From Myxosarcina sp. GA_180221_E-2-1-MAG-40_15 (lineage in GTDB: Bacteria; Cyanobacteriota; Cyanobacteriia; Cyanobacteriales; Xenococcaceae), in contig JAIMKV010000006.1 in assembly GCA_020692205.1 (NCBI GenBank), forward strand, positions 12,244 through 76,243: a stretch of DNA of 64,000 nt, read 5' to 3'. The translations under genes were made by a program, and so were the position numbers. Each line of letters opens with the position of its first letter. The stretch's first letter is position 1. Positions 4,125 through 50,675 of this stretch are shown piece by piece. The notes beneath the pieces are model-generated. The model was not told the DNA's origin, made no database searches, and saw only the letters and a list, made by a program, of their open reading frames with translations.

Positions 4125-5951
4125 GTGTCTGAATCATTAAGCGATCGCTACTTTGCCCTCATAGATGAAATCGTTGAGCTTACTCTTCAGGGAAAAATTA
4201 GTTCTGTAGAGCGAGTCTATAGAATACTAGTGGAAAAAGTAGATATTGGCACGGGAGAAATATTAGAACGCTGTCTTAATCAACGCCTTGAAGCAGCTAA
4301 AGCACAGTTAGAAACCAAACTGAAAGCAGCACGAGTTCTAAGAGCGTTACAAACTATCGAAAAGCAGTGGGAGCGTTGGCAAGAAGAAAACCAAGTAGAT
4401 GCCGAGATCTCTGAAACTGCCCAAATTATTTTAGCTGGCGAACCCGAAGACTATTTCTTAAGAACTGTAGACGTGCTAGATCCCAACCAAGACAACCCCT
4501 TGAGCATCGATCAATTAGCTAAATTAGCCCAGGGGTTGAAAACTGCTGCCAAAACTCAACAAAACGCTCAACTAGCCCAAGATTGGCAACAATTAGCTGA
4601 TGGCATTACCGCAGGCTTAAAGTCTTTTACTGCTTTAGAAGAGGATTTAGTCAGTTGGATGTATGGTTCGTCGAGTAATTTCTCGGGTTTTGGTGCTGAA
4701 AAGCCAAATCCTTGGCGTATCTGGGCGCAGAAAGTTCATAGCACCTTGCCCAAACAGCTATTTCAAACCTTAGCTCAACAACAGTCAGCCTTAGCTTTTG
4801 CGAGAATGGCAAACAATTTGGAACTAAGAGCCTGGATTGAGTTAGCAATTCTGCTGCAATATCTTCAGCGAGGTTTGGTCACCTGGTTCGATCAGCAGCC
4901 CTATAACTCTAAGTTTGGCAAAGAATTATCATATAGTACTCTGTTGACTTTTGCCTCTATCTGGTGCGAACTATGGCAAGCATTTGAAAATAGCAAACCT
5001 GCTTTGGCTGATGGTTGTTTTTTACTCATGCTGCAAATTTTACGTACCTTTGCTCAACGAGAAGATTTTCCTCTCTATAGCGGTGTGTTTGCTTCTTTTT
5101 CGGGTGAATATTTGCAAGATACTCTAGATTACTTTGATGAACCTCTCAAACAGGTGGAAGGCACAGAAGAAAAAGCTCGGATCTTAACTTTATTAGGCTA
5201 TTCTCAGCGGACTGCGGGAGCTTATGACAAAGCGATTATATTTCATCAAGAAGCGTTAGAAATTGCGATTGATGCCAATGATTACTATTGCGAGATTGCC
5301 AACCTCAATCATCTCAGTCGTACTAACGTCAACCTAAAAAACTATAGCGAAGCAATAAACTATAGCCAGAGAGCCTTAATTGCTGCCCGTCAGGTAGGCG
5401 ATAAGTTGGGCGAAGCAAACGCTTCGGTCAACTTAGGCTATGCTCAGGTATTTGCAGCCCGCGAGCTAGATAGTATGGCAGCAGAAAGCTATAGTGAAGC
5501 GATCCGTTATCTTGAACAAGGAGTTGAGCTGGCGAAGAAGCAAGGAGATTCTCAGAGTCAATCTTTTGGCTACAGCAGTTTGGGTATTGCTTATGTGATC
5601 TTAGAACAGCCTACTGCTGCGATCGCTTCTTTGACTAAAGGGGCAGAATTAGCCCAGTATTCTAGAGATGTCTATCTTCAAGGATTGAGCTTTTCTTATC
5701 TAGCAGAAGCCTATTACAGCATTGAAGATCGAGCCGCAGCCATTACTTACGGCAGTTTAGGAATGTATCTACTAAATCAAATTAATTCTATTGAGTGGCG
5801 ACAGGTAGCAGGTTTACTCTCAATTATTCAAGGGCAGATCGGCACTGAATTTAACAAGATCTTGGGACAACAGCGATCGCAAATTATCGCTCTAATTGGC
5901 GTTGATGGCTATGATTATCTACCACAATTGTTAGAAGATTATCGCTCCTGA
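4125..5951 (+). CDS. TPR-repeat protein
   Basis: 608 residues starting at a GTG; a -10-like TATAAT lies at 4091-4096, which would give a short leader. The N-terminal ~330 residues are helical, with a charged amphipathic stretch rich in Leu, Glu, Gln and Lys, and no recognised domain. From about residue 350 to 575 there are tetratricopeptide repeats (for example LLGYSQRTAGAYDKAIIFHQ and later copies with A-x-x-x-x-x-x-A-L spacing). No signal peptide or membrane segment is seen, so it is probably cytoplasmic. Such proteins usually act as protein-protein scaffolds; the partner is unknown. It is convergent with the MFS gene. Confidence 0.7.
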   Translation: MSESLSDRYFALIDEIVELTLQGKISSVERVYRILVEKVDIGTGEILERCLNQRLEAAKAQLETKLKAARVLRALQTIEKQWERWQEENQVDAEISETAQIILAGEPEDYFLRTVDVLDPNQDNPLSIDQLAKLAQGLKTAAKTQQNAQLAQDWQQLADGITAGLKSFTALEEDLVSWMYGSSSNFSGFGAEKPNPWRIWAQKVHSTLPKQLFQTLAQQQSALAFARMANNLELRAWIELAILLQYLQRGLVTWFDQQPYNSKFGKELSYSTLLTFASIWCELWQAFENSKPALADGCFLLMLQILRTFAQREDFPLYSGVFASFSGEYLQDTLDYFDEPLKQVEGTEEKARILTLLGYSQRTAGAYDKAIIFHQEALEIAIDANDYYCEIANLNHLSRTNVNLKNYSEAINYSQRALIAARQVGDKLGEANASVNLGYAQVFAARELDSMAAESYSEAIRYLEQGVELAKKQGDSQSQSFGYSSLGIAYVILEQPTAAIASLTKGAELAQYSRDVYLQGLSFSYLAEAYYSIEDRAAAITYGSLGMYLLNQINSIEWRQVAGLLSIIQGQIGTEFNKILGQQRSQIIALIGVDGYDYLPQLLEDYRS

Positions 5952-11116: not shown

Positions 11117-11917
11117 TTAGTTTCCTAAAGATAATGATACATTCCATCTTTTCTTTGTCATTTCATCAAATGAAAAATGCAACTTGCCTCTTTGTTCCCC
11201 AATTACTTCAATAGTGTAAAAATCGCTTTTTGGTATGCCACCTACCTCGAATTCAAAAACACAAGCAGATGAGTAGACGCTATACAAACCACTTTCACTT
11301 TGTCCTGTTGCCAAAATCTTGCCAGATCCATCTTTAATAGTGATAGGTAAATTTCCTCTTACATCATCATATCCACCTGTCCCATGACAACTCTTACCCG
11401 ATGATAGTTGAACTCTTTCTGAATCAGTAAGAGCAAAACTACCTTTAATAGAGTAAACAGGTGCTTTAGCAACAACTAATTTCACAACGCTACCTTTATT
11501 TAGAGTTGTGCCAGGATTAGGATATTGTTTTATGATTTTTCCAGAAGCTAGATTTTCTTCTAACTTTTCAGAAACTATAACTTTAAATCCTTGAGCAACA
11601 AGGATTTCTCTGACAGATTCAACATTCTGTCCTTTAAAATCGACTAATACACTTTCAGATAATATTTCACTTGAATTATTTATTTCAAGTTCTGAAGGTT
11701 CTAATTTTGGAGTAACGTGATTAGATTCATCGAAATTTCCAAAACATTCTGTTATCCCTGTATTAGGATTAATCCAATAATTATAGCAGTTTTTTGGTTG
11801 GCTAAAAACAGGATAAATAGCAAAACAATTTATCAATCCTGCAATAGAAATAGTTGTGAAATAGCCATGTTTATAGTAATTTTTTTTATTATTAATCATA
11901 GTATATATAAAAATCAT
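11117..11917 (-). CDS. Secreted PASTA-domain protein
   Basis: 266 residues. The N-terminus has a basic stretch then a hydrophobic segment (TTISIAGLINCFAIYPVFSQ), consistent with a signal peptide cut near FSQ. Residues ~91-150 form a PASTA domain (VDFKGQNVESVREILVAQGF, then IIKQYPNPGTTLNKGSVVKL). The C-terminal ~115 residues have no recognised domain but read like a beta-rich extracellular module. PASTA domains bind peptidoglycan or muropeptides, usually on Ser/Thr kinases or PBPs; neither is attached here. An internal ATG at 11899 is an equally plausible start. The gene lies in the AT-rich, HIP1-free patch and is convergent with the 10584 gene. Confidence 0.7.
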   Translation of the reverse strand: MIFIYTMINNKKNYYKHGYFTTISIAGLINCFAIYPVFSQPKNCYNYWINPNTGITECFGNFDESNHVTPKLEPSELEINNSSEILSESVLVDFKGQNVESVREILVAQGFKVIVSEKLEENLASGKIIKQYPNPGTTLNKGSVVKLVVAKAPVYSIKGSFALTDSERVQLSSGKSCHGTGGYDDVRGNLPITIKDGSGKILATGQSESGLYSVYSSACVFEFEVGGIPKSDFYTIEVIGEQRGKLHFSFDEMTKKRWNVSLSLGN

Positions 11918-19225: not shown

Positions 19226-19297
19226 TTTTAGTATTCTTTAAATCGCTAAAGCTGCTTCTTTAGTCTGTTGGATTAGTGATCAAAAAAATCTAGTTGA

Positions 19298-20404
<1,107 letters not shown>

Positions 20405-20482
20405 TGGATCGATCTAGTTGAGCTATTAGGCGATCGCTCTTAAAGATTATATATTTAACTAAGGCGATCGCTGTACATTAAA

Positions 20483-22639
20483 TTAGGCACAGATAATTTT
20501 CTGGCGATCGACTCCTTGTAACACCCCGACTCCTCCTAAACGCTGAACCAATTTTGCCATTCTATCGGCAAAATGAATAACGCAAGGAAGACGACTATAA
20601 GCATATGCACTTGCCGGGTTTAACATAGATAATCTATCAATTTGACGAGCTAAAATTTCTAAAGGCGCATCTCCATAATCTCTAACTACTTGCAAAGGAC
20701 GCGCGCTTCCTCCCGCCTTGGCTTCAGAAGTAACAATACGAAAAGTATCTCCATCAGCTGATAAGATCGCTGTTCCAGATGATGCGTCTGTTAAAAATTC
20801 TGACTGATCAGGTAATATTGCCATTCTTCCTGCACCACTTTTTCTTACTCCCAAAACATCGACAGCAATATTTGCTTTATCTAACTCTGCAACTGTTTCT
20901 AAAAATTCGTCAGCTTGTACAAGACCATCTCGTAGAAGTAGTACACGTTTCGGCATTTTATTTTCTTGAGCCTGAAATCTAGTAATAATATTACTTACAG
21001 TACGCCAGACTGCTTGACCACTTATTGTTTCTCCTCGTTGCGCTTCAGGAATTTCCCAACCTAAATTTTGTCCGTTGGCTAAAACAGCAAACGCACTTGT
21101 ACCGTAATACATTTGTCTATTTGTTCCCGCATCAAAACCAATCACTACTTCTGCTGCGTATCGATCTTGAATTGGTTCTAATCCAACTGGCTGCCATTTT
21201 GCTTTCAGTAATAAACCTAGAACAATGTTAGCAATGCGATAATCTTCGTCTTTGAACATAGGCTGCATAAATTGAAGTGCAATATTAGCTTCTAAAGCTT
21301 CTCTTTGAAATTGAGCTTTTACCGTATTTTCTAACCAGGGGGTGACAACCAAAATAGTTTGAGTACCTTGATTTGCCCAACTCTGCCAGAATTGTTTACG
21401 TGCTAACGAACCATTTGGTAAATCCTGTTTATTTTTTGCAGATTCTAGAAAAATATTTACATCACTTTTCTTGGCTACACTTTCTAGCTTATTGCTAATA
21501 AATTTTGTCCAGCCACCGCTGTTTGTTAAATCCAAGCAACCAAACTGTTTTTCCCCAACACTATAACAGCCTACATCTAGACTCTTGTTCGGACGATTAA
21601 CCTTTGATGATTTAGTTAATAGTATAGGGGATTTACTCCTTAGAATAATGCCTTTTGCTTTTTGAGGTTGTATCCTAGTATCAATTATTGTTTGCTCAAC
21701 ATCGTAAATTTTTTGAGCCAACCATTTAGCTGTATTCTCCCCTTTTTTAAAGCGATTTTTAATAGATTGACGAGTTTGAGAAAAAACTTTAGCAGCTTCG
21801 TTTGAACCTCTCTCTTTTAAAATGCTTAAAATTTCCATTGTTATACTAGGTCTTAATCTAGTAGAAAGATGTGGTATTTCTTGATTTTTGCTATCTAAAT
21901 AAACAACCCTCGCATCCTTAATTTCAGTTTCTGTTGCAGGTATGTTTAATTTTCGATGATAATCTGCTAAACTCGCTCCTGTTGATAATATTACTTGCTC
22001 AGGGTTTTCATTACTAGTGCGAACTAGTTGCCAAGAAAGAAAATTATAGGTATTTCGTACCCACTTAATTGGAATATCAGAATAAGTTTGTAACCATTGT
22101 TCTAATGTCCAAGGAGAGTAAAAACGATGATGAGTATCAAGTTCAACTAATACCATGCCTGAAGAGTGAAGCTCTAAATCTAAACGAACCCCTGTGTGAA
22201 CCTCCCAACCTAAATCTTTGAGAATAACTTTATCGGCATTCCACCAAATAAATCCTCCTTCTGAAGCATTTTCCACTTGATTTTTTTTAGATCTTTGTCG
22301 AATTTCTTTACCTAACCAACGTCTTTCTAATCTTTCTAGAGCCTGTTTTTCAACTAAATTTTCTGGATTTAAAAGCTTAGTTTCTTGATGTCGCAAAGTC
22401 CAATCTTTATTACTTAAGTATCTGTCAGATATTTTTTCTTTAGTAATAATAGTTGAACCAAATTTTACTCCTGATGTATATCCAATTTTATAAGGAATAC
22501 TGTTGATTGCAGAATATTCTTTACCTAGTTCAGGAGATGACTCAAAATTGCATTTATAGATTTGAACAGTTTTATCCACCTCAGTTAATTTTTTAAGTGG
22601 AAAGCGATTTAAATAGACTTTAACGTCGGCTTGATTCAT
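20483..22639 (-). CDS. ago: Prokaryotic Argonaute, catalytically intact, stand-alone
   Basis: 718 residues, long-type pAgo. The N-terminal domain starts with a typical VYLNRFPLKKL, and a PAZ-like region includes TGASLADYHRKLNIP (~220-235). The MID domain is ~340-490. The PIWI domain from ~495 carries the full RNase H-like tetrad: D503 (VIGFDAGTN), E537 (AQRGETIS), D571 (LLLRDGL) and D692 (VIHFADRMAKL). It should be a guide-directed DNA or RNA nuclease. No nuclease, helicase or Sir2 partner is adjacent; ilvC is convergent and ndhB upstream is closed by a terminator, so it is monocistronic. Unlike its neighbours the gene contains no HIP1 octamer over 2.1 kb, suggesting acquisition. Closest known type is probably the SeAgo-like cyanobacterial group. 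Confidence 0.93.
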   Translation of the reverse strand: MNQADVKVYLNRFPLKKLTEVDKTVQIYKCNFESSPELGKEYSAINSIPYKIGYTSGVKFGSTIITKEKISDRYLSNKDWTLRHQETKLLNPENLVEKQALERLERRWLGKEIRQRSKKNQVENASEGGFIWWNADKVILKDLGWEVHTGVRLDLELHSSGMVLVELDTHHRFYSPWTLEQWLQTYSDIPIKWVRNTYNFLSWQLVRTSNENPEQVILSTGASLADYHRKLNIPATETEIKDARVVYLDSKNQEIPHLSTRLRPSITMEILSILKERGSNEAAKVFSQTRQSIKNRFKKGENTAKWLAQKIYDVEQTIIDTRIQPQKAKGIILRSKSPILLTKSSKVNRPNKSLDVGCYSVGEKQFGCLDLTNSGGWTKFISNKLESVAKKSDVNIFLESAKNKQDLPNGSLARKQFWQSWANQGTQTILVVTPWLENTVKAQFQREALEANIALQFMQPMFKDEDYRIANIVLGLLLKAKWQPVGLEPIQDRYAAEVVIGFDAGTNRQMYYGTSAFAVLANGQNLGWEIPEAQRGETISGQAVWRTVSNIITRFQAQENKMPKRVLLLRDGLVQADEFLETVAELDKANIAVDVLGVRKSGAGRMAILPDQSEFLTDASSGTAILSADGDTFRIVTSEAKAGGSARPLQVVRDYGDAPLEILARQIDRLSMLNPASAYAYSRLPCVIHFADRMAKLVQRLGGVGVLQGVDRQKIICA

Positions 22640-22693
22640 TCACGTAAGTTTGTTTAGTTTTTGATTCGTGCAAATAATTGAGATTGTATCTCC

Positions 22694-22721
22694 TAAAAAA
22701 ATAGCCTGCAAAAGCAGACTA
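22694..22721 (-). terminator. Rho-independent terminator of ndhB
   Basis: On the minus strand: TAGTCTGC, loop TTTT, GCAGGCTA, then TTTTTTT. This is a stem with one mismatch and a clean T-run, placed 24 bp after the ndhB stop and before the Argonaute start. Confidence 0.75.
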
Positions 22722-22744
22722 AAGGTAAGTATTATTTGACTGAA

Positions 22745-24340
22745 TTAATTAGTTAATTGTCGATCAATTAAATCATCTACTTTAGAGATTTGAACTTTGC
22801 TTGGAGGTATTTGTATTTCTTGAGTAATAATCGCCGATCGCAAAATTGGCGTAGTCGCAACAGAATTACTGCTGAGGGTAAACAAAGGATTAGATAAAAT
22901 TCCCGCTAAGGAAGTAATAATTGCTGAAGCTACAATACCTACTTGTAAAGGTCGCATACCTGGAAGCTTCCAGTTGATCGTCGGGTAGTTTTTCACCGAG
23001 TCGGACATTTCTTGAGGTTCTTTTACTACCATCATTTTGACGACGCGGATGTAGTAGTAAATCGAGATAACGCTGGTGATTAGACCAAGTAAGACTAAGC
23101 CATAAAGCCCAGCCTGCCAACCTGCCCAGAAAAGGTAAATCTTGCCAAAGAAGCCCGCCATTGGCGGAATACCGCCCAAGGAAAGTAAGCAGATACTCAA
23201 GCACAGAGTCAGCAAAGGATCTTTTTGATATAAACCTGCATACTCACTAATTTGGTCAGTACCTGTACGCAGCGAGAAAAGGATAATACAGGTAAAAGCC
23301 CCCAAATTCATAAATAAATAGATAAATAAATAAAAGATCATGCTGGAATAGCCATTATCTGTCCCAGCAATCAAACCAATCATCACAAAGCCAGCTTGGG
23401 CGATGGATGAATAGGCCAACATCCGCTTGATGCTAGTTTGTGCTAGGGCCACCACATTACCCAGTACCATACTGAGAATTGCCAGGGCGGTAAAGATAAA
23501 ATGCCATTGTTCGGTTAATGAACCAAAGGCTGTGACTAAAAGACGAATAGCTAGGGCAAAACCCGCTGCTTTTGAACCAACAGACAAAAAAGCTACCACA
23601 GGAGTAGGTGAACCTTCATAAACGTCTGGTGTCCACTGGTGGAAAGGGACTGCCGAGATTTTAAACGCAATACCCGCAATGACAAATACTAGAGAAATCG
23701 CTAACCCCAAAGACTGTAGCCCGTTGATGGCTGTGACGCTACTGGCGATCGCATTAAGATTTGTTTCTCCCCCAGACAAGCCATAAAGCAACGACATTCC
23801 ATAAAGAAAAATTGCCGAACTAGCTGCACCGATCAGCAGGTACTTCAGCGCAGCTTCGTTAGAACGAGGATCGCGCTTCATGTAGCCCGTCATCAGGTAA
23901 GAAGAGATACTCAACATCTCTAGAGAGATAAACACCATCGTTAGCTCATTTGCCCCACAGAGGAACATGCCCCCGAGAGTGGCTGTAAGCATAATCGCCA
24001 TGAATTCTGCCAAAGATGTTCCTGATTGCTGAATATAGCGAATAGACATCGGGATCGTAACCATTGCCGAGAGGGCGACAATCCCTCGAAAGACAATGCT
24101 AAGATTGTCACCACTAAATGAGCCGAGAAAAGCGATCGCATTGGGGTTGTTCCATTGAAAGAAGAGAGCCACAAGACTGCTAAACAAGCCAGCGATTGCC
24201 AGGTACGGCAACCAACGAGAGGAACTACGACCAAAGATTATATCGCCTACTAAAACAGCCATGATCGTGACGATGACAATGCCCTCAGGCAAAATTGTCG
24301 CTGCATGAAGCTGAGAGGCTACACTGCTAGAAAAATCCAT
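22745..24340 (-). CDS. ndhB: NAD(P)H-quinone oxidoreductase subunit 2 (NdhB)
   Basis: Membrane subunit of the NDH-1 complex, an antiporter-like proton-pumping protein used in respiration, cyclic electron flow and CO2 uptake. About 14 hydrophobic helices, with the conserved stretch [20 protein letters not shown], then [16 protein letters not shown] and [18 protein letters not shown]-like [15 protein letters not shown] place the start at the ATG of [11 protein letters not shown] (24340), which matches cyanobacterial NdhB; a 10-residue upstream extension to 24370 is possible. A strong terminator follows. Confidence 0.95.
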
Positions 24341-24622
24341 AGATTTAGGTATTGTCAGATATAGATACAATTGAAAAATTGCTGTAAGAGCTATACAAAG
24401 GATTGTAACTCTCGATCTTTATTCTGTTTCAGCTTATTATGTTTTGGCTTTTTAATAAACTTAAGCATCAACTTTTAGCAAATCTTGGTTATGGTGAAAA
24501 CAACACCTAAACAACCTAAACAAAAAAGATGTTTGTCGTTTGAGGGATTATAACTATAGATTAGAAAATAAATCTCTATTAAAATCAAACCCTGCTATTA
24601 AACTTTCGTTAACTTCATCTCT

Positions 24623-27325
<2,703 letters not shown>

Positions 27326-27338
27326 GAAGTCAGGAGTC

Positions 27339-27413
27339 GTAGGGGCGAACGCCCTAAAGGATTAGCTTCCCTAAAGGACTCGCTTCGCATCGCGCGTCGC
27401 CGTTCGCCCCTAC
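27339..27413. repeat. Interspersed inverted repeat after topA
   Basis: GTAGGGGCGAACG (27339-27351) and CGTTCGCCCCTAC (27401-27413) form a perfect 13-bp stem around a 49-base interior made of the modules CCTAAAGGA, GCTTCGCATC and GCGCGTCGC. The same interior modules occur near 9.7 kb. It probably also ends topA transcription. Confidence 0.75.
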
Positions 27414-29905: not shown

Positions 29906-32449
29906 CTAGTTATTGTAGGCATCTAAATTAATTTGAACTGGTTTGACATCCCAAATTTGCTCGCAGTATTCTTTAATCGTGCGATCGCTCGAAAATTTAC
30001 CCATCCTGGCCGAGTTAAGAATCGACATTTTAGTCCATTTATCTTGATCTTTGTAAGTCTCGGAAACTTGCTCCTGACAGTCGATGTAGTCTTGATAATC
30101 TGCCAGCAACATATAGGGATCATCATAGAGTAAAGAGTCAACAATCGGCTTAAATAGCTTGCTATCACCGTGACTGAAGTAGCCGTTAGCAACGCGCTCA
30201 ATTACTGCCTTTAATTCCTCGTTACTATTGTAATAAGACATTGGATCGTAACCATCTGCCTTCATTTGATAAACTTCCTCGGCTGTCAAACCAAACAAAA
30301 AGAAGTTTTCTGCACCAGCTTCTTCACGAATTTCAATATTAGCCCCATCTAGAGTACCAATAGTTAGTGCGCCATTCATGGCAAACTTCATGTTTCCCGT
30401 ACCCGAAGCCTCTTTGCCAGCGGTTGAAACTTGCTCAGATAAGTCCGCAGCTGGATAGATTTTTTGACCTAGAGAGACATTAAAGTTGGCCAAAAAAACT
30501 ACTTTTAAACGTCCTCGGACATCGGGATCTTTGTTGACTACTTCTCCTACCGCGTTAGCAAATTTGATAATTAGCTTGGCCATAAAATAACCAGGGGCAG
30601 CTTTCCCACCAAAGATAAAAGTACGAGGCACAATATCAATATTGGGGTTTTGTTTGATGCGGTTATAAAGAGTGATAATATGCAGCACCATCAAATGCTG
30701 ACGTTTGTATTCGTGAATTCGCTTGACTAAAACATCAAAGATAGAATCAACGTTAACGTCAATATTTTTAGTTTTTTGAATTTGCGCTGCTAGGGTCATT
30801 TTATTTTGACGCTTAATCTCTCGCCATTGCTGGCAAAATTCGGGATCGTCAATGAATTTTTCTAATACCCGCATCTCGTCTAGGTTTTTCAACCAAGAAT
30901 CACTCTGAGTTTTTTCCGTAACTAGCTTGGCTAGTCGAGGATTGCTGAGTAAGATCCAGCGACGAGGAGTAACTCCGTTAGTTTTATTAAAGAATTTTTC
31001 AGGCCACAATTTAGCGAAACCCTGAAGCGTATATTTTTGCAGGAGCTTGGTGTGAAGAGCTGCAACGCCGTTAATGGCATGACTACCAACGCAGGCGAGG
31101 TTTGCCATCCGCACTTTTTTGTCTACTCCTTCTTCGATAATCGACAACTCTGAGGCTAAATCTTCATCATCAGGAAACCAAGTACGAATATCTTCTAGAA
31201 AACGGTGATTAATTTCGTAGATAATCTCAATGTGTCTTGGCAACATTCGACCAAATAAACTGACGGACCATCTTTCTAACGCTTCTGGTAGTAGAGTATG
31301 GTTAGTGTATGCCAAGGTTTTTTGAGTAATGTCCCAAGCCTGTTCCCAGTCCATACCGTGTTCATCGACAAAAAGGCGCATTAATTCTGCTACTGCTACT
31401 GCGGGATGAGTATCATTGAGTTGAATTGCCGCCCGTTCGTGGAAGTTACTCAGATCGGGGTAAACGTTCAGATGAATACGAATCAAATCATAAAGAGAAG
31501 CAGAAACAAAGAAATATTGCTGCGCTAGGCGTAGCTCTTTACCTTGGGGAGTATTATCGTTAGGATACAGTACTTTAGAAATAGTTTCCGAACTCATTTT
31601 TTCGGCGACGGCGCGGTCGTAGTTACCAGCGTTAAACGCCTCAAAATTAAACTGTTCACTAGCTTCAGCTTTCCAGAGGCGTAGGGAGTTGACGGTATTA
31701 GTGCGATATCCTGGCACAGGTGTATCATAAGGAACGGCTTTTACCTTGCGATCGCAAATCCAGCTGACGCGGTTATTTCCTTGCTCATCACGATAGCTTT
31801 CGGTGTGTCCTCCTAGCTTAATCTCTACTGAATCTTCGGGACGAGCTATTTCCCAAGGATTTTTAAACATCAGCCAGTTATCGGGAATTTCTGCCTGCCA
31901 GCCGTCTCTTAAAGCCTGATGAAAAATGCCAAATTCGTAGCGAATACCATAACCAATAGCGGGAATTTCTAAGTTAGCCAAAGAATCGAGGAAACAAGCC
32001 GCAAGTCTACCTAAACCGCCGTTACCTAGACCTGGATCTGGTTCTTCCTCGACTAAATCTTCGATATCTAAGTTGAATTCTTCTACTACCTGGCGCATTT
32101 TTTCGTAGATCCCCAGAGAAATTAAGTTGTTTTCTAAATGGCGACCCATTAAAAACTCGGCGGAGAGATAAGAAACTACCTTAACGTCTTCTGTATAGTA
32201 AGTGCGTCCAGTCTTGATAAAACGATGGAGTAGACGATCTCTAACTGTGTAGGCTAATGCTTGATAGTAATCATGAAGTGTAGCCGTAGATTCGTCTTTT
32301 CCCTGAACATAAAATAAGTTGTCAGCAAAGGCTCTTTTGAGAGTCTCCATGCTCATTCCCGTGCGATCGTCTTCTACCTGAATCCCAGGATTAGCCAAAT
32401 TACTACCACTAAGGTTTTGACCAAGCTTTTGAGAAGTTTTTGTGTCCAT
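29906..32449 (-). CDS. glgP: Glycogen phosphorylase
   Basis: 847 residues, normal length. Releases glucose-1-phosphate from glycogen. The PLP lysine is K688 in EASGTGNMKFAMNGALTIGT. The N-terminal region shows the family pattern YYLSAEFLMGR-like (VVSYLSAEFLMGRHLENN) and NGGLGRLAACFLDS. It is first in a same-strand series with eno and gap1 further upstream, but gaps of about 230 bp and 75 bp suggest separate promoters for at least glgP. Terminated by the hairpin just after its stop. Confidence 0.96.
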   Translation of the reverse strand: MDTKTSQKLGQNLSGSNLANPGIQVEDDRTGMSMETLKRAFADNLFYVQGKDESTATLHDYYQALAYTVRDRLLHRFIKTGRTYYTEDVKVVSYLSAEFLMGRHLENNLISLGIYEKMRQVVEEFNLDIEDLVEEEPDPGLGNGGLGRLAACFLDSLANLEIPAIGYGIRYEFGIFHQALRDGWQAEIPDNWLMFKNPWEIARPEDSVEIKLGGHTESYRDEQGNNRVSWICDRKVKAVPYDTPVPGYRTNTVNSLRLWKAEASEQFNFEAFNAGNYDRAVAEKMSSETISKVLYPNDNTPQGKELRLAQQYFFVSASLYDLIRIHLNVYPDLSNFHERAAIQLNDTHPAVAVAELMRLFVDEHGMDWEQAWDITQKTLAYTNHTLLPEALERWSVSLFGRMLPRHIEIIYEINHRFLEDIRTWFPDDEDLASELSIIEEGVDKKVRMANLACVGSHAINGVAALHTKLLQKYTLQGFAKLWPEKFFNKTNGVTPRRWILLSNPRLAKLVTEKTQSDSWLKNLDEMRVLEKFIDDPEFCQQWREIKRQNKMTLAAQIQKTKNIDVNVDSIFDVLVKRIHEYKRQHLMVLHIITLYNRIKQNPNIDIVPRTFIFGGKAAPGYFMAKLIIKFANAVGEVVNKDPDVRGRLKVVFLANFNVSLGQKIYPAADLSEQVSTAGKEASGTGNMKFAMNGALTIGTLDGANIEIREEAGAENFFLFGLTAEEVYQMKADGYDPMSYYNSNEELKAVIERVANGYFSHGDSKLFKPIVDSLLYDDPYMLLADYQDYIDCQEQVSETYKDQDKWTKMSILNSARMGKFSSDRTIKEYCEQIWDVKPVQINLDAYNN

Positions 32450-32677
32450 ATTTCCCTAAATGATGATGTTTGGATAAATAATTGCTTGTGGCACAGACAG
32501 GCAATATGGTCATAAAAATTGCAGTGGGGCAAACGCTGTCTAAGTCCAATTTTGTATAACTCACTTCTATATTGCCATGTCTAATTTAATCTAGCTGTTT
32601 ATAGGTTACAACTAGAATGCACCTTAGAGGCTGAGAAATATCCAAGCCTTAAGCTTTGGTTTAGATAAGCAATTAAT

Positions 32678-33982
<1,305 letters not shown>

Positions 33983-34047
33983 TTAAAACTGATAAATTAT
34001 TTGCTCGAGATCTAGGCGAAAATTAATATATCCTTAATAATTTAAGC

Positions 34048-35740
<1,693 letters not shown>

Positions 35741-39566: not shown

Positions 39567-40343
39567 TTACTGACCTAAATACGCTTCTAAGACCAACTTA
39601 TTCTGCTGAATTTCTTCTGGTGTACCATCTGCCAAGTTAGTGCCTTCGGCTAATACCCAAACGCGATCGCACAAGCTCATAATTACATCCATGTTATGTT
39701 CGATCACTAAAAAAGAAATTCCCTGTTGGTTCCAGCTAACAATATGCTCGCAAATCTGATTGATTAAGGTTGGATTAACTCCCGCTGCTGGTTCATCTAA
39801 TAAGATTAGCTTCGGATTAGTCATGAGAGTACGAGCCATCTCTAATAGTTTTCTTTGTCCACCAGACAAAGCTCCTGCATAATCATGAGCCTTGGCTGCC
39901 AACCCTACCGACTCCAAAATGTCCATTGCTCGTTGCTTATTTTCTCGTTCTTCTGCTCTTAGTTTTGCTTGTTGAAACCAAACCTGAAAAAAGTTTTCCC
40001 CCGTCTGATTTGGCGTTGCTAGCAGCATATTGTCCAAGACGGATAGGCGAGACAGCACTCTAGCTACCTGAAAAGTACGGATAAAACCTAGAGTCGCAAT
40101 TTTATGACAGGGTAAATTGTGGATTGGCTGGTGGTCAAATAAAATTTTGCCGCGATCAGGTTTAATAAAATTAGACAGCAAATTAAATAAAGTTGTTTTT
40201 CCTGCCCCATTAGGTCCAATTAAGCCCGTAATACTGCCTCGATTAACTTCAAGACGAGCATTATTTACCGCTTTAATCCCGCCAAAACTTTTAGCTAAAT
40301 CTGTAGCCAGGAGAAGAGGATCGCTTAACAAATCTTGTTGCAC
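39567..40343 (-). CDS. ABC transporter ATPase, LivG/NatA type
   Basis: 258 residues. Walker A GPNGAGKTT, signature LSGGQRKLLEMART, Walker B LILLDEPAAGV and the switch His in VIEHNMDVIM are all intact. The long insertion after the Q-loop and the ENKQRAMDILESVGL stretch mark the LivG branch, which drives branched-chain or neutral amino-acid uptake (NatA in Synechocystis). No permease, LivF-type partner or binding protein is nearby, so the other subunits must be encoded elsewhere. Confidence 0.88.
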   Translation of the reverse strand: MQQDLLSDPLLLATDLAKSFGGIKAVNNARLEVNRGSITGLIGPNGAGKTTLFNLLSNFIKPDRGKILFDHQPIHNLPCHKIATLGFIRTFQVARVLSRLSVLDNMLLATPNQTGENFFQVWFQQAKLRAEERENKQRAMDILESVGLAAKAHDYAGALSGGQRKLLEMARTLMTNPKLILLDEPAAGVNPTLINQICEHIVSWNQQGISFLVIEHNMDVIMSLCDRVWVLAEGTNLADGTPEEIQQNKLVLEAYLGQ

Positions 40344-44318: not shown

Positions 44319-46040
44319 TCACGCAACCGTTAATTCATTGATGATTTGCTCAATTTTAGCCAAAGCGTTATGAGGATTATTTTCAGCGTAAGTTATCATC
44401 GACTGCTCTATTGCCAAAACGTGATCGCTCACAGCATCTAAAGCATCCTGTAAAGGTTGTAGCTGCTGTTGATAAAAATCAATTTGAGATTGTATTTGAA
44501 CAATGTTCAGGTTTAATTCATGCCAACTATTTTGTTGTCGCTCTATTTCTGACTCTAATTGGCTTTTCTGAGCTTTTTGTTGGGCTAACTTAGTTTCTAA
44601 CCCCTCAATACTATCCTCTATTTGTGCCACCTCTACTGCTAGCTCTTGTTGTTGTTGTTGCAGTTTTTGCTGTTGTTTTTCTAACCCTTCTTTAATGGGA
44701 GCTAAATCTATATCTTGAATCTCAGACTCAAAATCAAAGTCAATTATTCCTTCACGGCGTTTCAAGACTCTAGAGTGTTGCAGCAATACATTGTGCCTTT
44801 CTTTGAGAGAGCGGCGCTGACCAACCAAAGTCTGATCCAACATCTTTTTGGCTTCTCTTTCATCAGCTAACTCTTGTTCTAAAGTCAGACGCTCAAAATC
44901 TCTGGCTTCAGCAATCTTAGCTTCAAGTTCTTCTACGGCTTTGCACTGCCAACCCAACTCTTCCTCTTGGTCATTGACAAATTTGGCTACCTTTTCTAAG
45001 TCTTGCTTCAAATTCTCAACCGTGGCTTTTAAATTTGGTAAAGGCATATTTTCCAGCTCGTTGAGATTAATCTTTGATCCTCCATCAGCATCAAACTCAG
45101 AACCAGACAGCATTTGTAGCATACTCTTTTGAGCGTCTGATTGCAGGTTGAGAAACTGAGTTAATTCTTGCTTAACCTCCCAAGACTTTTGTTCTATGCT
45201 TAGCTGTTGTTCCGCTTCGGCAATATATTCTTCTAAAGACTTTACCTGCTGTTTTTTGGCTGTTAATCCCGCTGCTAAATCAACTAAATTTTGACGTTTA
45301 GTTTGAACATCCTCAGTGCTTTGCGTCAAGTTTTGCCAATGGGGCTGTAAAATTTGTTGTTGCTGTTTGACCGCTTCGACGGTCAAATTCAACTGATCTT
45401 GAAGCGAACTAGCAGAATCATTGGCAGCAGCTATTACTGCTAATTGTGTTTTGATTTGATTGGCTTGAGCCTCGTCTAAAGCTTTAGCTTGTTTGAGCTG
45501 CTCTTCTAAATTCTGTTGTTGACCCCGTAATTGTTCCCAAGCACCCTGTAACTCAGTACTTCTAGCTTCAAATTCAGCTTTAATCTTTTCAGTTTCTGAT
45601 TTGGCGATCGCAATTTCTGAACGCTGTTGTTCAAACTGTTTGAACTCCTCTTCCATCTGCTCTACCTGTTCTAGGCGAGTTTCCATCTCTATCTGACGTC
45701 GGCTTAATTCTTCACTTTGAATCGCCAACGATTCTTTCCACTGGTCAATTTCTTGTTCTTGATCCTGGGTTTTTTCCAAAAGACGAGAAAAATTTTTGAG
45801 GATGCTAATAATTTTTTGTGAGGCTGATTCTATTTTTCCCTGTATTTGGCGGTTGACACCCAAGTTAACCACAACCATGGCTCCATCACCAAAGTCGTTA
45901 GCTTCTTCAGCAGTAACTGATTCATTATTAATCATGCTCCAGCTTTGATCGTTTCGCTGACAGGCTATGAGTTTGAGCCTAGTCTCTACGCCACCCATAA
46001 AACCTTTACTCTGTTTTTGTATTTCCGCCAGATATAGCAC
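44319..46040 (-). CDS. hmpF: Pilus motility taxis protein HmpF
   Basis: 573 residues. The N-terminal start MLYLAEIQKQSKGFMGGVET and SWSMINNESVTAEEANDFGD match HmpF, which in filamentous cyanobacteria is needed for type IV pilus gliding and localises with the pilus motors. From about residue 60 to 550 the protein is nearly all coiled coil, rich in Gln, Glu, Leu and Lys (for example LEKQQQKLQQQQQELAVEVA). No membrane segment is seen. It is divergent from the pilH-pilI-pilJ genes across 890 bp, as in other cyanobacterial hmp loci. Confidence 0.85.
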   Translation of the reverse strand: MLYLAEIQKQSKGFMGGVETRLKLIACQRNDQSWSMINNESVTAEEANDFGDGAMVVVNLGVNRQIQGKIESASQKIISILKNFSRLLEKTQDQEQEIDQWKESLAIQSEELSRRQIEMETRLEQVEQMEEEFKQFEQQRSEIAIAKSETEKIKAEFEARSTELQGAWEQLRGQQQNLEEQLKQAKALDEAQANQIKTQLAVIAAANDSASSLQDQLNLTVEAVKQQQQILQPHWQNLTQSTEDVQTKRQNLVDLAAGLTAKKQQVKSLEEYIAEAEQQLSIEQKSWEVKQELTQFLNLQSDAQKSMLQMLSGSEFDADGGSKINLNELENMPLPNLKATVENLKQDLEKVAKFVNDQEEELGWQCKAVEELEAKIAEARDFERLTLEQELADEREAKKMLDQTLVGQRRSLKERHNVLLQHSRVLKRREGIIDFDFESEIQDIDLAPIKEGLEKQQQKLQQQQQELAVEVAQIEDSIEGLETKLAQQKAQKSQLESEIERQQNSWHELNLNIVQIQSQIDFYQQQLQPLQDALDAVSDHVLAIEQSMITYAENNPHNALAKIEQIINELTVA

Positions 46041-46154
46041 TATGCGCCTTCCTCTTGATTTCTTCTGCGCAGGAACTCAGAAAAATTAAGCTTTTCCAGT
46101 TTACTGCCGATTTACTAAAATAACCAGATTAAATTAAATTCAAATAAATTTAAA

Positions 46155-46435
46155 CCTGACACGCAATTGGTGGACGGTGCAAGTCGGCGAAGCCTGTGTT
46201 CACAAGGGGAGGACGTTGAAGCGTAGCGATCCGCAAGTCGTTTAGACTCGGTTGCCTCGCCTCTTTATCGTCCGTGCTGTGGTCGTACAGCGGATGAGTG
46301 AGTAAGAGTATTCTTACTCAACAAGTCGATTCCATGGATCTGCGGAAACCGCAGCATGGCTCGACTTCAAAACGCGCTTTAGTTTTGCTGCGACCTTTAA
46401 AAGCCCCGTCGCCTTCAGCGGTCAATTAATTAAAT
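46155..46435 (+). mobile_element. Structured GC-rich element, probable IS200/IS605 right-end remnant (omega-RNA-like)
   Basis: A sharply GC-richer island in an AT-rich spacer. Stems: TGAGTAAGA/TCTTACTCA (46299-46307, 46312-46320); a three-tier hairpin at 46323-46367 (AAGTCGA/TCGACTT, CCATG/CATGG, CTGCGG/CCGCAG); GCTGT/ACAGC (46276-46291); GGACG/CGTCC (46211-46215, 46269-46273). The 3' end AAGCCCCGTCGCCTTCAGCG resembles the right-end hairpin of IS605-family tnpB elements. One frame near 46165-46220 reads DGASRRSLCSQGEDVEA, weakly like TnpB C-termini. No tnpB or tnpA is present. Alternatively a free-standing structured RNA. Confidence 0.45.
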
Positions 46436-46930
46436 TGAATGTTTTGAGCCTAACCAGTAACATAATCGGTTGCCAAGATTTTTTAATCAACTAATTTTTG
46501 ATTGAATCAAATGGCATCAGCAATAATAAGTTTTGAATAGTAAGATTGCTGTCAAGCTTCTATTATTTATACTAAGCATCAATAAGAGTTGAATATTCAA
46601 ATTTAACTTAATCAAAGCTCAATCTTAATCGATAAACTAGCTGAATAAATCAGTAAATAACACATTTACAGATTTGTTAGGTTATCAGGTAGTCAAGATC
46701 CAATTAAATTGAGCAGTAAATAATTTAACTAAAAAATAAATTTGGCTCGAATTATGTTGATCGTGACGTGGCGATTGCTCAGAAAGTAGAGTATATTCTG
46801 AAGCGGATAGGTTACTAATTAAATAAATTTATTAATAATAAGCGAATTTAAGTAGAGGTTGAATTTTCATTAGTTTAATGATTTGCCAAGTAGACTTAAG
46901 TTAAGTATGACTTTTCGTAGATAGCGTGTT
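46436..46930. other. AT-rich spacer upstream of the pil/hmp genes
   Basis: Nearly 500 bp, very AT-rich, directly before pilH. It should hold the promoter of the taxis operon. No ORF or hairpin of note. Confidence 0.45.
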
Positions 46931-47296
46931 ATGAGCAAAGTTCTAATCGTAGAAGATAGTCTGGCGCAAAGACAAATGATTTCTGATCTCCTCAAAGGTA
47001 GTGGTCTTAAAGTGACCGTTGCTTGTGATGGAGTTGAGGCTTTAGAGCATCTAGAAACACTAAATCCTGACATAGTGGTTATGGATATTGTCATGCCCAG
47101 AATGAATGGCTATGAATTGTGTCGTCGCCTAAAATCAGATCCTAAAACTCAAAATGTTCCAGTTGTTATGTGTTCTTCCAAAGGAGAGGAATTTGATCGC
47201 TATTGGGGAATGAAACAGGGTGCGGATGCTTACATTGCCAAACCTTTTCAACCAGTAGAATTAATCGGCACTGTCAAACAATTGCTTCGAGCCTGA
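46931..47296 (+). CDS. pilH: CheY-like response regulator of pilus taxis (PilH/HmpB type)
   Basis: 121 residues, a single receiver domain. Acidic pocket E8-D9 (VLIVEDSLAQRQ), phospho-acceptor D52 (VVMDIVMPRMNG) and the conserved Lys in AYIAKPFQPVEL are all intact. No output domain. Order with CheW and MCP genes downstream fits PilH-PilI-PilJ (HmpB-C-D) of the cyanobacterial type IV pilus taxis system. The PatA-type regulator PilG/HmpA that usually precedes it is absent. Confidence 0.88.
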   Translation: MSKVLIVEDSLAQRQMISDLLKGSGLKVTVACDGVEALEHLETLNPDIVVMDIVMPRMNGYELCRRLKSDPKTQNVPVVMCSSKGEEFDRYWGMKQGADAYIAKPFQPVELIGTVKQLLRA

Positions 47297-47356
47297 ATCA
47301 CAATTATTTCTGATGATACAGTTAGCAGTCTTAGATAGTATATTACAAGAAATCTT

Positions 47357-47887
47357 ATGGTTACTAATCCAGAACTGTATACCGAAAGTGGTCTAGATTT
47401 ATCTCTAGACATTAAGCCGTTAGAAAATCCTGATGGCGAACTTCATCTGCGCTTTTATTTACCATCAGGAAAGGCTTGCGCTTTTCCTGCCACAGGTATA
47501 GCGGAAGTAATGCAACAAACGCCCGATCAGATTGCCCCGATTCCGAATGCTTCTCCTCTACTATTGGGCACAATAAACTTACGGGGAAGAGTAATTTGGG
47601 TTGCAGATCTTGGTCAGTTTTTGGGGGATAGTATCGCTTTAAAAACTGACCGTCCCACAATTCCTGTAATTGCTATTGAAGATCGAGAGCAAATTATCGG
47701 TTTGGCAATCAGCAGTCTTGGCGATATGGATTGGTTAAATGTAGAGCAATTAAAAATCGATCAACCTGTGGCAGACAGTATGGCTCCTTTTGTTCAAGCT
47801 CAATGGCAGCCCGAAAATGAAAGTGATTTAATTGTCAATTTGTTAGATCCAGGAAAAATTTTATGGTCTGCACGATGGGCAACCTAA
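47357..47887 (+). CDS. pilI: CheW-type coupling protein (PilI/HmpC type)
   Basis: 176 residues. A CheW SH3-like domain spans ~25-170, with the pattern IAEVMQQTPDQIAPIPNASP, LLGTINLRGRVIWVADLGQF and IGLAISSLGDMDWL. It should bridge the MCP PilJ to a CheA kinase encoded elsewhere. Lies 60 bp after pilH and 200 bp before pilJ, same strand. Confidence 0.88.
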   Translation: MVTNPELYTESGLDLSLDIKPLENPDGELHLRFYLPSGKACAFPATGIAEVMQQTPDQIAPIPNASPLLLGTINLRGRVIWVADLGQFLGDSIALKTDRPTIPVIAIEDREQIIGLAISSLGDMDWLNVEQLKIDQPVADSMAPFVQAQWQPENESDLIVNLLDPGKILWSARWAT

Positions 47888-48088
47888 ATATACTCAAGGG
47901 TTAGGCAATTAATTAACGCTTAAGTTAAAACTTACTTTCTGATTGAGTAAGATTACAGAAAATATCATTATTACCTTAGTTTTTTTATTTCCTAATATAA
48001 ACTTACGGTCGTCATAGAGTCAAAGCATAGAGTAACTATCACTCGTCAACGCAAGCAACTAAAATTTAGATTATATTTGGCAAGAAGC

Positions 48089-50560
48089 ATGGCATCAGGA
48101 ACTAACTATTCACAGGAATACGGGCAAGCAGAGAAAGCCTATTTGGAAAGTAATTTTGCTCAAGCAGCAGAAATAATCGATCATTTAGCCGACGAATTTC
48201 CCAATGATCCGAATGTCTTGTTGTTGAGGGGTCATATTTATTGTTATGGATTCCAAAACTATGACCTAGCAAAACACCAGTATGAAAGCGTTTTAAATCT
48301 TAGTGAAGAGCAAGATTTACTCGATTTTGCTCATAGTGGTATTGAACAGGTAGAGCAACTTCAACAACAGTCAGAATCAGCCTTAGCTATGGATGAGGAG
48401 GGGTTAGAACTGACAGAAATGAGTGACGGTGAAGATGTTGATGAGGCTGAAGATTCAATTGGCATTGATTTTCCTGACGAAGACGTAATCGATGAAGATT
48501 TTCAGCGCGGGGGAGAAGACTCCGAAGATATAGAAGATGTCAAGCTCGAAAATATAGCTCCTATCGATGAAAGCGATCGCTCTGGAGATCCTTTTGCTCA
48601 GTTTGACTCTAAATCATCTTCAATGTCCGCAGAATTGCCAGTAGGAGAGTCTAGAGGAGTTTATACTAATTCTACCTTAACCGATGATGATGATGACCTA
48701 CCCGATTATACCGCTGAAGACTTTGTCATTCATCGCAGCGAGTATGAAGACGATTATGATGATAGTTCCGAGCTGGAAATTGATACAGTTCTAACCGAAC
48801 CATTTTCCCTGGAAAATTCTCGAAACTATAGCATGGAAGATCTTCCCGAACAAGAGGGTTTAGATTATCAGGATGAACTTGAATTTGATGAAATTGACAG
48901 CAGCTTCTTTGATTTGGAAGAACTTGAGCAAGGCCTTCCAGATACTGGATTATTTAACGTAGCTGAAGAACCTATTAGTGCTAGTTTAAACATTAGTAAT
49001 GATTTCGCTTTAGAATCAAGTCCGATTCCATCTGAAGAAGTTGTTGTTAGTGAAGTGAGTTCAGGTGCAACAACATTTGTTAAAGGAAAAGAACCGCCAA
49101 AGATAGAAGTCAAGCAAGGAATCTTAGCTGACTTTATCAATGCTCCGATTCCCAAAAAACAGCTAATTACTGCGGGAATGACTGGGCTGGTTTCGGCAAT
49201 CTCTGTTTTAATTATTGGTTTAATTGGCTCTAATATTACTGCGGGTCAAAATTCAAACCCTAACATCACCCAAAGAGTCCAAAATAGCTTTTTACTCGCT
49301 TTGGTGGCTGGATTATCTAGCACGGGAACAACAGCAGCATTAGGTAGCATTACCGCCAAACATATCACCAAAGCCAGTCAGGATTTACAAAATCAGTTTG
49401 ATGATGTTTATCAGGGTAATCTTAACGCTAAAGCAACCGTATATTCCCAAGATGAATTTGGTCAATTAGCTTCTGGCTTTAATCGCATGACTAGGGTAAT
49501 TCTGACTACTACTCAGGAAGCTCAAAGAAGAGCCGAGGAAACTGAACAGGCAAAAGAAGATCTTCAACGTCAGGTAATCCGTTTACTAGATGATGTAGAG
49601 GGTGCAGCTAGAGGAGATTTAACGGTTCAGGCAACCGTAACCGCCGACGTACTAGGAGCTGTTGCCGATGCCTTCAACTTAACGATTCAGAGTCTGCGCG
49701 AGATTGTCCGTCAAGTAAAAGAGGCTGCCGAACAGGTAAACCAAAGCTCTACCGATAGTGAGTTATTTGCTCGTAACCAGTCTAGTGAAGCCTTACGGAT
49801 GGCAGAAGAATTGGCAGTAACTTTAAATTCGGTACAGATGATGACCGAATCGATCGAAAGGGTAGCAGACAATGCTCGTGAAGCAGAGGAAGTTGCTCGT
49901 TCGTCTTCAGTCACTGCTCTCAAAGGCGGTAAGGCAGTAGAACGAACCGTGTCGGGAATCTTCCAGATTAGGGAAACGGTATCAGAAACAGCCCGTAAAG
50001 TAAAACGATTAGCCGAAGCTTCTCAAGAAATCTCGAAAATTGTGCTTTTAATCTCGCAAATTGCCGAAAGAACCAATCAGCTGGCTCTTAATGCTTCAAT
50101 TCAGGCGGCTAAAGCGGGTGAGGCTGGTCGGGGTTTTGCCGTAGTTGCCGATGAAGTCAGACAGCTAGCGGATAGATCTGGTAAATCTTTAAAAGAAATT
50201 GAGCAAATTGTACTCCAGATTCAAAGTGAAACTGGCTCGGTTATGACCGCTATGGAAGAAGGTATCCAGGAAGTAATCGACGTAACCGAAAGAGCAGAAC
50301 AAGCTAAAACTGCTCTAGAAGATATTATTCAGGTATCTAATCGGATTGATGTCCTAGTGCGTTCAATTACTGCCGATACCGTCGAACAAAGAGAAAACTC
50401 TCGTGCAGTAGCTCAGGTAATGCAGTCGGTAGAGTTAACTGCTCAAGCCACATCTCAAGAATCACAACGGGTTGGTGGTGCGCTGCAAAGCCTAGTGGGA
50501 ATTGCTCGTGGTTTGCTTTCTTCAGTCGAAAGATTCCGTATTGATCAAGGCGAAGAATAG
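48089..50560 (+). CDS. pilJ: Methyl-accepting chemotaxis protein (PilJ/HmpD type)
   Basis: About 823 residues from the ATG at 48089 (a TTG at 48077 would add four). The N-terminus is TPR-like ([20 protein letters not shown]), followed by ~200 very acidic residues, then two close membrane helices near 360-385 and 400-425. HAMP-like segments follow, and the cytoplasmic signalling hairpin near 660-710 ([20 protein letters not shown], then [19 protein letters not shown]) is highly conserved. There is almost no periplasmic loop, so it is unlikely to sense an outside ligand directly; the long cytoplasmic N-terminal part may read a cytoplasmic or pilus-motor signal. No cheA follows. Confidence 0.88.
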
Positions 50561-50675
50561 AACAATTATCAAATTTTGAGATTTAATCCTTTTGAGCAGT
50601 ATGTCAAGCTCCTCTTTCGCCCACTGAAATTTTATGATTCAATAGAGTTTTGCGCCTTTATTTGTAAACTGCTCT

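What the first reader, a model, noticed from the sequence alone, without database searches (positions are those of the whole stretch)
20483..22639. Stand-alone catalytic Argonaute in an otherwise core region
Full-length pAgo with the DEDD tetrad D503-E537-D571-D692 and PAZ-like and MID regions. It has no associated nuclease or helicase gene, sits between ilvC and ndhB behind a strong terminator, and lacks HIP1 octamers across 2.1 kb although both neighbours carry them. This suggests a recently acquired guide-dependent nuclease for plasmid or phage defence, or a role in chromosome decatenation like some pAgos.
Basis: partly seen in the sequence, partly recalled or inferred. Interest (0 to 1): 0.72.

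Follow-up and report, generated by a model that had tools for sequence, protein, structure and literature searches.

The report
Cyanobacterial Argonaute with altered guide pocket
This cyanobacterium carries one complete gene for a DNA-cutting Argonaute protein of a kind already known to keep out foreign DNA; the gene is not a newcomer, is broken in the nearest relative, and has an unusual change in the pocket that should hold the guide's end.

Summary
The gene is real: window 20483-22639 (-) encodes a 718-aa long-A prokaryotic Argonaute with PAZ, MID and PIWI matches and the tetrad D503/E537/D571/D692, aligned to TtAgo. It belongs to the TtAgo/SeAgo branch. Predicted active members from Pleurocapsa and Stanieria are already in print. 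Most likely it is a guide-dependent DNA nuclease that limits foreign DNA; this is inferred from relatives, no activity was shown.

"Recently acquired" is not supported. GC3 is below the neighbours' mean in 13 of 13 ago copies measured, and HIP1 is scarce in the nine family copies, including pairs diverging at species-typical synonymous rates, so these traits do not date the gene. It lies between ilvC and ndhB only in this species and its closest relative, where two blocks meet that lie apart in the other genus members examined. In that relative it is a pseudogene. Of 27 family genomes, 10 hold this type: 6 open, 4 broken or remnant. Older transfer stays possible.

New detail: the second residue of the guide 5'-phosphate pocket (K422 in TtAgo) is Gln or Glu in 8 of 10 copies of this clade, but Arg in 11 of 11 sister-clade copies. 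A basic neighbour (446) is present in all 10. This noncanonical pocket can be tested.

The parts
20483..22639 (-). ago: long-A prokaryotic Argonaute, 718 aa (N, PAZ, MID, PIWI)
21848..22099 (-). PAZ domain match (residues 181-264; Pfam PAZ_3)
   Evidence: coordinates computed from the residue range
21203..21319 (-). MID guide-5'-end pocket region: K441, Q445 (noncanonical; K in TtAgo, R in sister-clade copies), R446, Q456, K479
   Evidence: coordinates computed from residues 441-479
20543..21253 (-). PIWI domain match (residues 463-699) with tetrad D503, E537, D571, D692
   Evidence: coordinates computed from residues
22702..22721 (-). hairpin plus T run, likely terminator of ndhB that separates it from ago
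22683..22712 (-). weak promoter-like match (9 of 12) upstream of ago, overlaps the hairpin; not above chance
   Evidence: 8 promoter-like sites found, 13.6 expected
19406..20404 (+). ilvC, convergent neighbour: end of one syntenic block (ribonucleotide reductase gene - ilvC)
22745..24370 (-). ndhB, upstream co-directional neighbour: end of the other block (ndhB-topA)

Best explanation
It is a chromosomal, stand-alone, catalytically complete long-A Argonaute of the TtAgo/SeAgo branch. It probably takes up short DNA guides made by host nucleases from plasmid, phage or replicating DNA and cuts complementary DNA, so acting as a dispensable barrier to incoming DNA. Shown here: the domain make-up, the tetrad, the kinship, purifying selection on intact copies, and repeated loss in relatives. 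Inferred: guide type, target type, cutting, the source of guides and the defence role. The guide pocket has lost the basic residue at its second position while the adjacent residue is basic throughout the clade, so 5'-phosphate binding is expected to be kept through R446 or to be loosened.
For: PADLOC 893.6 bits, TtAgo 260 bits, tetrad. Sister clade at 42-45% identity. SeAgo reduces transformation and blocks RSF1010 replicons, and selection for such a plasmid gave ago mutations in 8 of 8 strains (PMC10653904, abstract and section 9). Intact pairs evolve under constraint: omega 0.14-0.28 in 8 pairs, against 0.03-0.08 for topA in 6 pairs. Loss is repeated: 4 of 10 family copies broken or remnant, two of these by one frame break only, which could be assembly errors. 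A hairpin with T run sets the gene apart from ndhB. A Cas4-like gene, whose homologue also hinders RSF1010 in S. elongatus (PMC10653904 passages), is present elsewhere in the genome.
Against: No activity, guide or expression was measured. Patchy presence and loss also fit a gene of little use. The MID motif departs from the canonical set, so guide use may differ from SeAgo. The AlphaFold model was useless (mean pLDDT 34.4), so the fold rests on sequence alone. SeAgo carries guides without obvious target specificity in its native host (PMC10269773 introduction).
Confidence: 0.72

Rival explanations
1. [quoted passage not shown]
For: TtAgo does so in T. thermophilus; SeAgo and LrAgo help E. coli under gyrase inhibition and load guides from the terminus (PMC10269773 abstract and first part of the discussion). 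In two relatives (G006, G007) ago lies beside the repair translocase gene mfd (TRCF domains).
Against: SeAgo does not protect its own host from ciprofloxacin (PMC10269773 abstract). An open copy was found in only 6 of 27 family genomes, some of which are incomplete, which is odd for housekeeping. The mfd link is absent beside the window's copy.
Confidence: 0.12
2. Recent horizontal acquisition: the gene entered this lineage shortly ago and has not ameliorated.
For: GC3 z -2.7 and no HIP1. Site shared only with G009 among the copies examined, at the join of two blocks. Ago distance to genus-mate G006 (0.58) is as large as to another genus (G097, G079: 0.54), while topA path lengths, summed by hand from the tree, are about 0.11-0.12 (G007, G002) and 0.46 (G079). 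One other family (f8) holds copies of both clades. Window-G009 ago dS (0.199) is lower than in 9 of 9 neighbours (0.256-0.531).
Against: Low GC3 recurs in all 13 cyanobacterial copies measured and scarce HIP1 in the nine family copies. Window-G002 ago dS fits core genes, near saturation. Genus monophyly is not rejected. The copy was at this site before the G000-G009 split.
Confidence: 0.15
3. A gene on its way out: intact here by chance, drifting without function.
For: Pseudogene in the nearest relative; only the last 318 bases found in G005; omega 3.5 to 9 times that of topA in the six pairs with both.
Against: The reading frame is complete. Tetrad residues are kept in the family copies that reach them; G242's last D falls outside the piece aligned. 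Omega 0.14-0.28 is far below 1, and is not outside the range of nine neighbours in the window-G009 pair (ago 0.22, neighbours 0.04-0.32). Three intact control pairs show no frame breaks.
Confidence: 0.08

Closest known systems
SeAgo (Synechococcus elongatus PCC 7942) and its cyanobacterial sister clade
   Same: Long-A with PAZ, MID and a complete DEDD tetrad; same TtAgo-related cluster as described in PMC10653904 section 5.
   Different: 42-45% identity to the clade taken here to hold SeAgo (genomes unnamed, so SeAgo itself was not identified). Pocket KQQK here, KRQK there in 11 of 11.
TtAgo (Thermus thermophilus)
   Same: Match over residues 85-716, 260 bits; same tetrad; pocket positions fall in the same columns in three multiple alignments.
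   Different: 32% identity. TtAgo pocket R418-K422-Q433-K457, here K441-Q445-Q456-K479. In strain HB8 the gene lies on plasmid pTT27.
pAgos with noncanonical MID* pockets, including MpAgo (MID-OH) and PliAgo (RHSY)
   Same: The key basic residue at pocket position 2 is lost while the tetrad is kept (PMC6299218 and PMC9360449, passages).
   Different: Only position 2 has changed here (also the last K in G007); no CRISPR genes adjacent as in MpAgo, and the aligned positions keep K, Q and K rather than PliAgo's neutral residues.
Predicted active pAgos of Pleurocapsa and Stanieria
   Same: Reported in PMC10653904 section 5; one relative of the window's copy is Pleurocapsales cyanobacterium LEGE 06147.
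   Different: Probably the same clade (inference, no sequences compared). Section 5 of that paper says nothing on the pocket residues or on broken copies.

Membership tests
Long-A prokaryotic Argonaute | N-PAZ-MID-PIWI architecture, full length | tested here: met
   PAZ_3, Piwi; Ago_Mid below its cut-off; pAgo model over residues 6-717
Long-A prokaryotic Argonaute | Catalytic DEDX tetrad | tested here: met
   residues D503/E537/D571/D692
Long-A prokaryotic Argonaute | Canonical 5'-end pocket (second residue K, R or Y) | tested here: not met
   Position 2 is Q445. PMC6299218 (passages) classes such proteins as MID*, still long pAgos, so this bars the canonical subtype, not the family. The first residue K is outside that paper's Y/H/R list too, but the paper names KR as a known long-A variant
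Long-A prokaryotic Argonaute | Guide-directed cleavage | not testable with these tools
   needs biochemistry
TtAgo/SeAgo branch | Closest to TtAgo-type rather than other pAgo groups | tested here: met
   TtAgo 260 bits, next CpAgo 52; PDLC02387 893.6 and PprPIWI 607 bits, next pAgo model 143.7. The trees hold only this branch and TtAgo, so they do not test it
TtAgo/SeAgo branch | PIWI fold in a structure model | tested here: inconclusive
   two-sequence model, mean pLDDT 34.4, not usable
MID-OH (MpAgo-like) pAgo | Hydrophobic pocket and Cas1/Cas2 neighbours | tested here: not met
   pocket stays polar or basic; neighbours ilvC and ndhB
pAgo with partner effector (SPARTA, SPARSA, PLD- or Cas4-linked) | Effector gene adjacent | tested here: not met
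   adjacent genes are metabolic and give no PADLOC match; Cas4-like gene on another contig

The most novel reading that the evidence does not exclude
The clade has rebuilt its guide-anchoring pocket. A basic residue appeared at 446 first (K-R-R state, kept in G157 and G601), then the conserved basic residue at 445 was lost to Gln or Glu. If so, these active Argonautes would accept guides with other 5' ends (5'-OH, or any end), which would change how guides are made and which DNA is targeted.
Probability: 0.25. Interest if true: 0.5.

Novelty: new member of a known kind. Interest (0 to 1): 0.32.

Why it matters
pAgos with noncanonical MID* pockets were described in 2018 as a class with no characterised member apart from the MID-OH group (PMC6299218, passages). 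This clade gives a natural series at residues 445-446 (RR, QR, QK, EK) for testing how an Argonaute can lose a conserved 5'-phosphate contact. The closely related intact and broken genes at one site also fit pAgo being a dispensable barrier whose loss can be selected when a plasmid must be kept, as seen in S. elongatus (PMC10653904 section 9).

Tried and rejected
HIP1 absence as proof of recent gain: rejected, because the nine family copies share it. Structure model: two-sequence alignment, mean pLDDT 34.4, not used further; no fold search was run on it. Phage or viral origin: the one viral-contig scan gave no relative; phage records gave one distant match, 21% identity. Plasmid origin: the listed plasmid matches that cover most of the query are Thermus, 30-33% identity (30 of 40 records listed). 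Conserved operon partner: neighbours differ between sites; mfd (G006, G007) and a Y1-type transposase gene after a magnesium-chelatase gene (G079, G242, and by clustering G097, where it is broken into two ORFs and the piece tested gave no Pfam match) are local links only. phmmer's pairwise alignment places K441 under TtAgo K422; the multiple alignments in three modes place Q445 there, with no gap between this clade and its sister, and I prefer these; this leaves some doubt about the exact TtAgo equivalence, none about the difference from the sister clade. In one of the three modes (localpair) the first pocket column of most distant pAgos is misplaced. The topA tree holds a false long branch for G006, because two pieces of a split hit were put together in the script; G006 is not used from it. 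G003's match (29%, E 2.7e-5) is another kind of pAgo and is left out of the family count of 10. Left out of trees: TtAgo, G111 and G058; these three and G369 (G111, TtAgo and G369 as long branches, G058 as a fragment); G005's remnant is in no tree. GC3 of the broken copies comes from one piece each. G005 and G058 were not measured there. Of the 12 other genus genomes, G003, G008 and G010 were not examined for synteny.

Papers: PMC10653904 abstract, sections 5 and 9 and passages; PMC10269773 abstract, introduction and the first of two parts of the discussion; PMC6299218 and PMC9360449 passages; PMC11817465 abstract and passages; PMC3497702 abstract; others only in search listings.

Full report
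What is there. The window's minus strand at 20483-22639 encodes a 718-aa protein. It matches Pfam PAZ_3 (1.7e-22) and Piwi (3e-08), and Ago_Mid below its cut-off; PADLOC's pAgo model PDLC02387 matches residues 6-717 with 893.6 bits. TtAgo is the best solved relative (260 bits; the next, CpAgo, has 52). All 34 rows aligned keep the tetrad, except that the piece used for G242 stops before the last D. The search of the own genome found no second copy.

Surroundings. ilvC ends convergently 78 bases away. ndhB lies upstream on the same strand, with a hairpin and T run between it and ago; hairpin and spacer are conserved in G009, the nearest relative. Terminator-like and promoter-like matches in the region are not above shuffles, so the terminator rests on its form and its conservation. 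PADLOC was run on all 40 window ORFs of 150 aa or more, ago included, and on one shorter one. Apart from ago, five gave a match: a TPR protein (4125-5948), topA to DpdF, an ATPase at 39570-40343 to many ATPase models (best mad3, 92.5 bits), and weak ones for a PASTA-domain protein (11120-11917) and a 573-aa protein (44322-46040). I read these as shared domains, not as a defence island.

Site history. In the genus, ndhB stands beside topA in 8 of 8 further regions examined, while ilvC is away from ndhB in 7 of 7 and beside the ribonucleotide reductase gene only in G007. In three genomes that have both genes on one contig (G003, G004, G012) they lie about 4.4, 0.25 and 1.2 Mb apart. Only the window genome and G009 join the two blocks, and ago sits at the join. 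Window 19245-27343 aligns with G009 in one piece at 91.5%.

Decay in relatives. In G009 the gene carries two single-base deletions and one nonsense codon, plus two in-frame deletions, one of them next to the catalytic Glu. The same procedure finds no frame break in 3 of 3 intact control pairs. In G005 only the last 318 bases were found. G157 and G242 each have one frame break, which could be an assembly error. Of 27 family genomes, 11 give a match, one of them (G003) of another kind; of the remaining 10, six are open (G000, G002, G006, G007, G079, G097) and four broken or remnant. Five of the 27 genomes are under 90% complete or over 5% contaminated (22 of 27 pass), so absence is not certain in all. 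In a draw of 388 genomes of the order, 17 match at E 1e-40 or better; in a draw of 386 of the phylum, 14 match at 1e-3, of which 8 are strong (E below 1e-100). In two Thermus plasmid records the ago match comes in two pieces, with a transposase gene among the annotated features under it.

Is it a recent arrival? The composition is unusual: GC3 0.208 against 0.334, second lowest of 40 ORFs; no HIP1 where 2.75 are expected, P 0.064. Its codons are the most one-sided of the 40, but towards the window's common codons, not rare ones. GC3 is below the neighbours' mean in 13 of 13 ago copies measured (z from -0.7 to -4.0, neighbours 5 to 39), and the nine family copies hold 4 HIP1 where about 23 are expected (sum; the copies are not independent). 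In the four copies from other families HIP1 is 0, 1, 2 and 0 where 2.84, 1.23, 1.95 and 0 are expected, so scarcity is a family trait rather than a phylum-wide one. The family copies include G097-G079, whose ago dS (0.275) equals that of topA (0.245) and the chelatase gene (0.308), and G002-G006 (0.416 against 0.436 for ndhB and 0.382 for ilvC). So low GC3 and scarce HIP1 are lasting traits of this gene in the family and do not date it. Window against G002 gives ago dS 1.14, with ndhB 1.07, ilvC 1.06 and topA 1.62, all near saturation. A tree with all genus copies together is not rejected (p-AU 0.224). Against simple descent: the window copy is as far from genus-mate G006 (0.58) as from another genus (0.54), although topA path lengths are about 0.11-0.12 within the genus and 0.46 to G079 (summed by hand, a tree with a false long branch for G006); ago dS between G002 and G079 (0.77) is well below topA's (2.13); family f8 holds members of both ago clades; and window-G009 ago dS (0.199) is below all nine neighbours tested (0.256-0.531). 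Older exchange within and between families is therefore likely, but a recent gain by this species is not shown.

Selection. Intact pairs give omega 0.14-0.28 (8 pairs), against 0.03-0.08 for topA (6 pairs). That is constraint with fast change, as expected of defence genes (inference). Window-G009 gives 0.22, within the range of nine neighbours (0.04-0.32), so the G009 lesions are probably young (inference).

The pocket. The guide 5'-phosphate pocket of TtAgo is R418-K422-Q433-K457 (PMC9360449, passages). Three MAFFT modes place window K441, Q445, Q456 and K479 at these positions, and two of the three also give clean pocket types for the 14 distant cyanobacterial pAgos (YK 6, YY 6, YT 2). A pairwise alignment differs: phmmer puts K441 under K422. 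Position 2 in this clade of 10: Q in 6 (window, G007, G009, G079, G097, G242), E in 2 (G002, G006), R in 2 (G157, G601). In the sister clade it is R in 11 of 11, in TtAgo K. The next residue, 446, is R or K in 10 of 10 against 2 of 11. G007 has also lost the last K. PMC6299218 lists YK, KR, RK, HK, YY and YR among long-A pAgos and calls the rest MID*, with none characterised at that date apart from the MID-OH group (passages). KQ and KE are thus noncanonical. The K-R-R state in G157 and G601 suggests that the second basic residue came first (inference; the order of branches in the clade is unresolved).

What it most likely does. SeAgo reduces natural transformation and RSF1010 upkeep in its own host, and selection for an RSF1010 plasmid yielded ago mutations in 8 of 8 strains (PMC10653904). 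The repeated loss seen here fits such a dispensable barrier. Decatenation is the main rival and is weaker, because SeAgo does not help its own host against ciprofloxacin (PMC10269773 abstract). Nothing here measures activity.

Novelty. [quoted passage not shown] thermophilus (PMC10653904 section 5), so this is a new member of a known kind. I saw no paper on a KQ/KE pocket or on broken copies in this family in the listings (20 of 82; 15 of 27; 10 of 65); none of these searches named the residues, so this is weak evidence of absence.

Noticed in passing
L036 5147-11028; L035 8691-15131: In G007 and G006 ago lies downstream of mfd (transcription-repair coupling factor domains) on the same strand.
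   Followed up: partly
L041 11073-11660, L042 4933-5577, L040 8181-8752: In three genomes of two other genera a gene of one cluster, Y1-type (IS200-like) transposase in two of them by Pfam, lies directly upstream of ago, after a magnesium-chelatase-type gene.
   Followed up: partly
G553:C10:18386-20530 and 32150-34294 (L078, L088): Two ago copies with the same score on one contig, 13.8 kb apart; duplication or assembly effect.
   Followed up: no
L027, L030: Distant cyanobacterial pAgos with a YT pocket (position 2 is Thr in all three alignments) and a complete tetrad, another noncanonical pocket.
   Followed up: no
NZ_CP144688.1 and NZ_CP144686.1 (hits H16, H17): In two Thermus thermophilus plasmid records the ago match comes in two pieces, with a transposase gene among the annotated features under it.
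   Followed up: no
window 45604-51782: Two HIP1 gaps of about 3 kb (one HIP1 between them), so long HIP1-free stretches are not rare here.
   Followed up: partly
window 11120-11917: Low-GC gene (GC3 0.177, the lowest of 40) for a PASTA-domain protein with a weak PADLOC PD-T4-6 match.
   Followed up: partly
window 39570-40343: 258-aa ATPase with matches to 21 PADLOC models (best mad3, 92.5 bits over residues 115-233); probably an ordinary ABC-type ATPase, not checked in Pfam.
   Followed up: no
window 20483-22639 against L038: ago dS to G009 (0.199) is lower than in nine neighbours (0.256-0.531); unexplained.
   Followed up: partly
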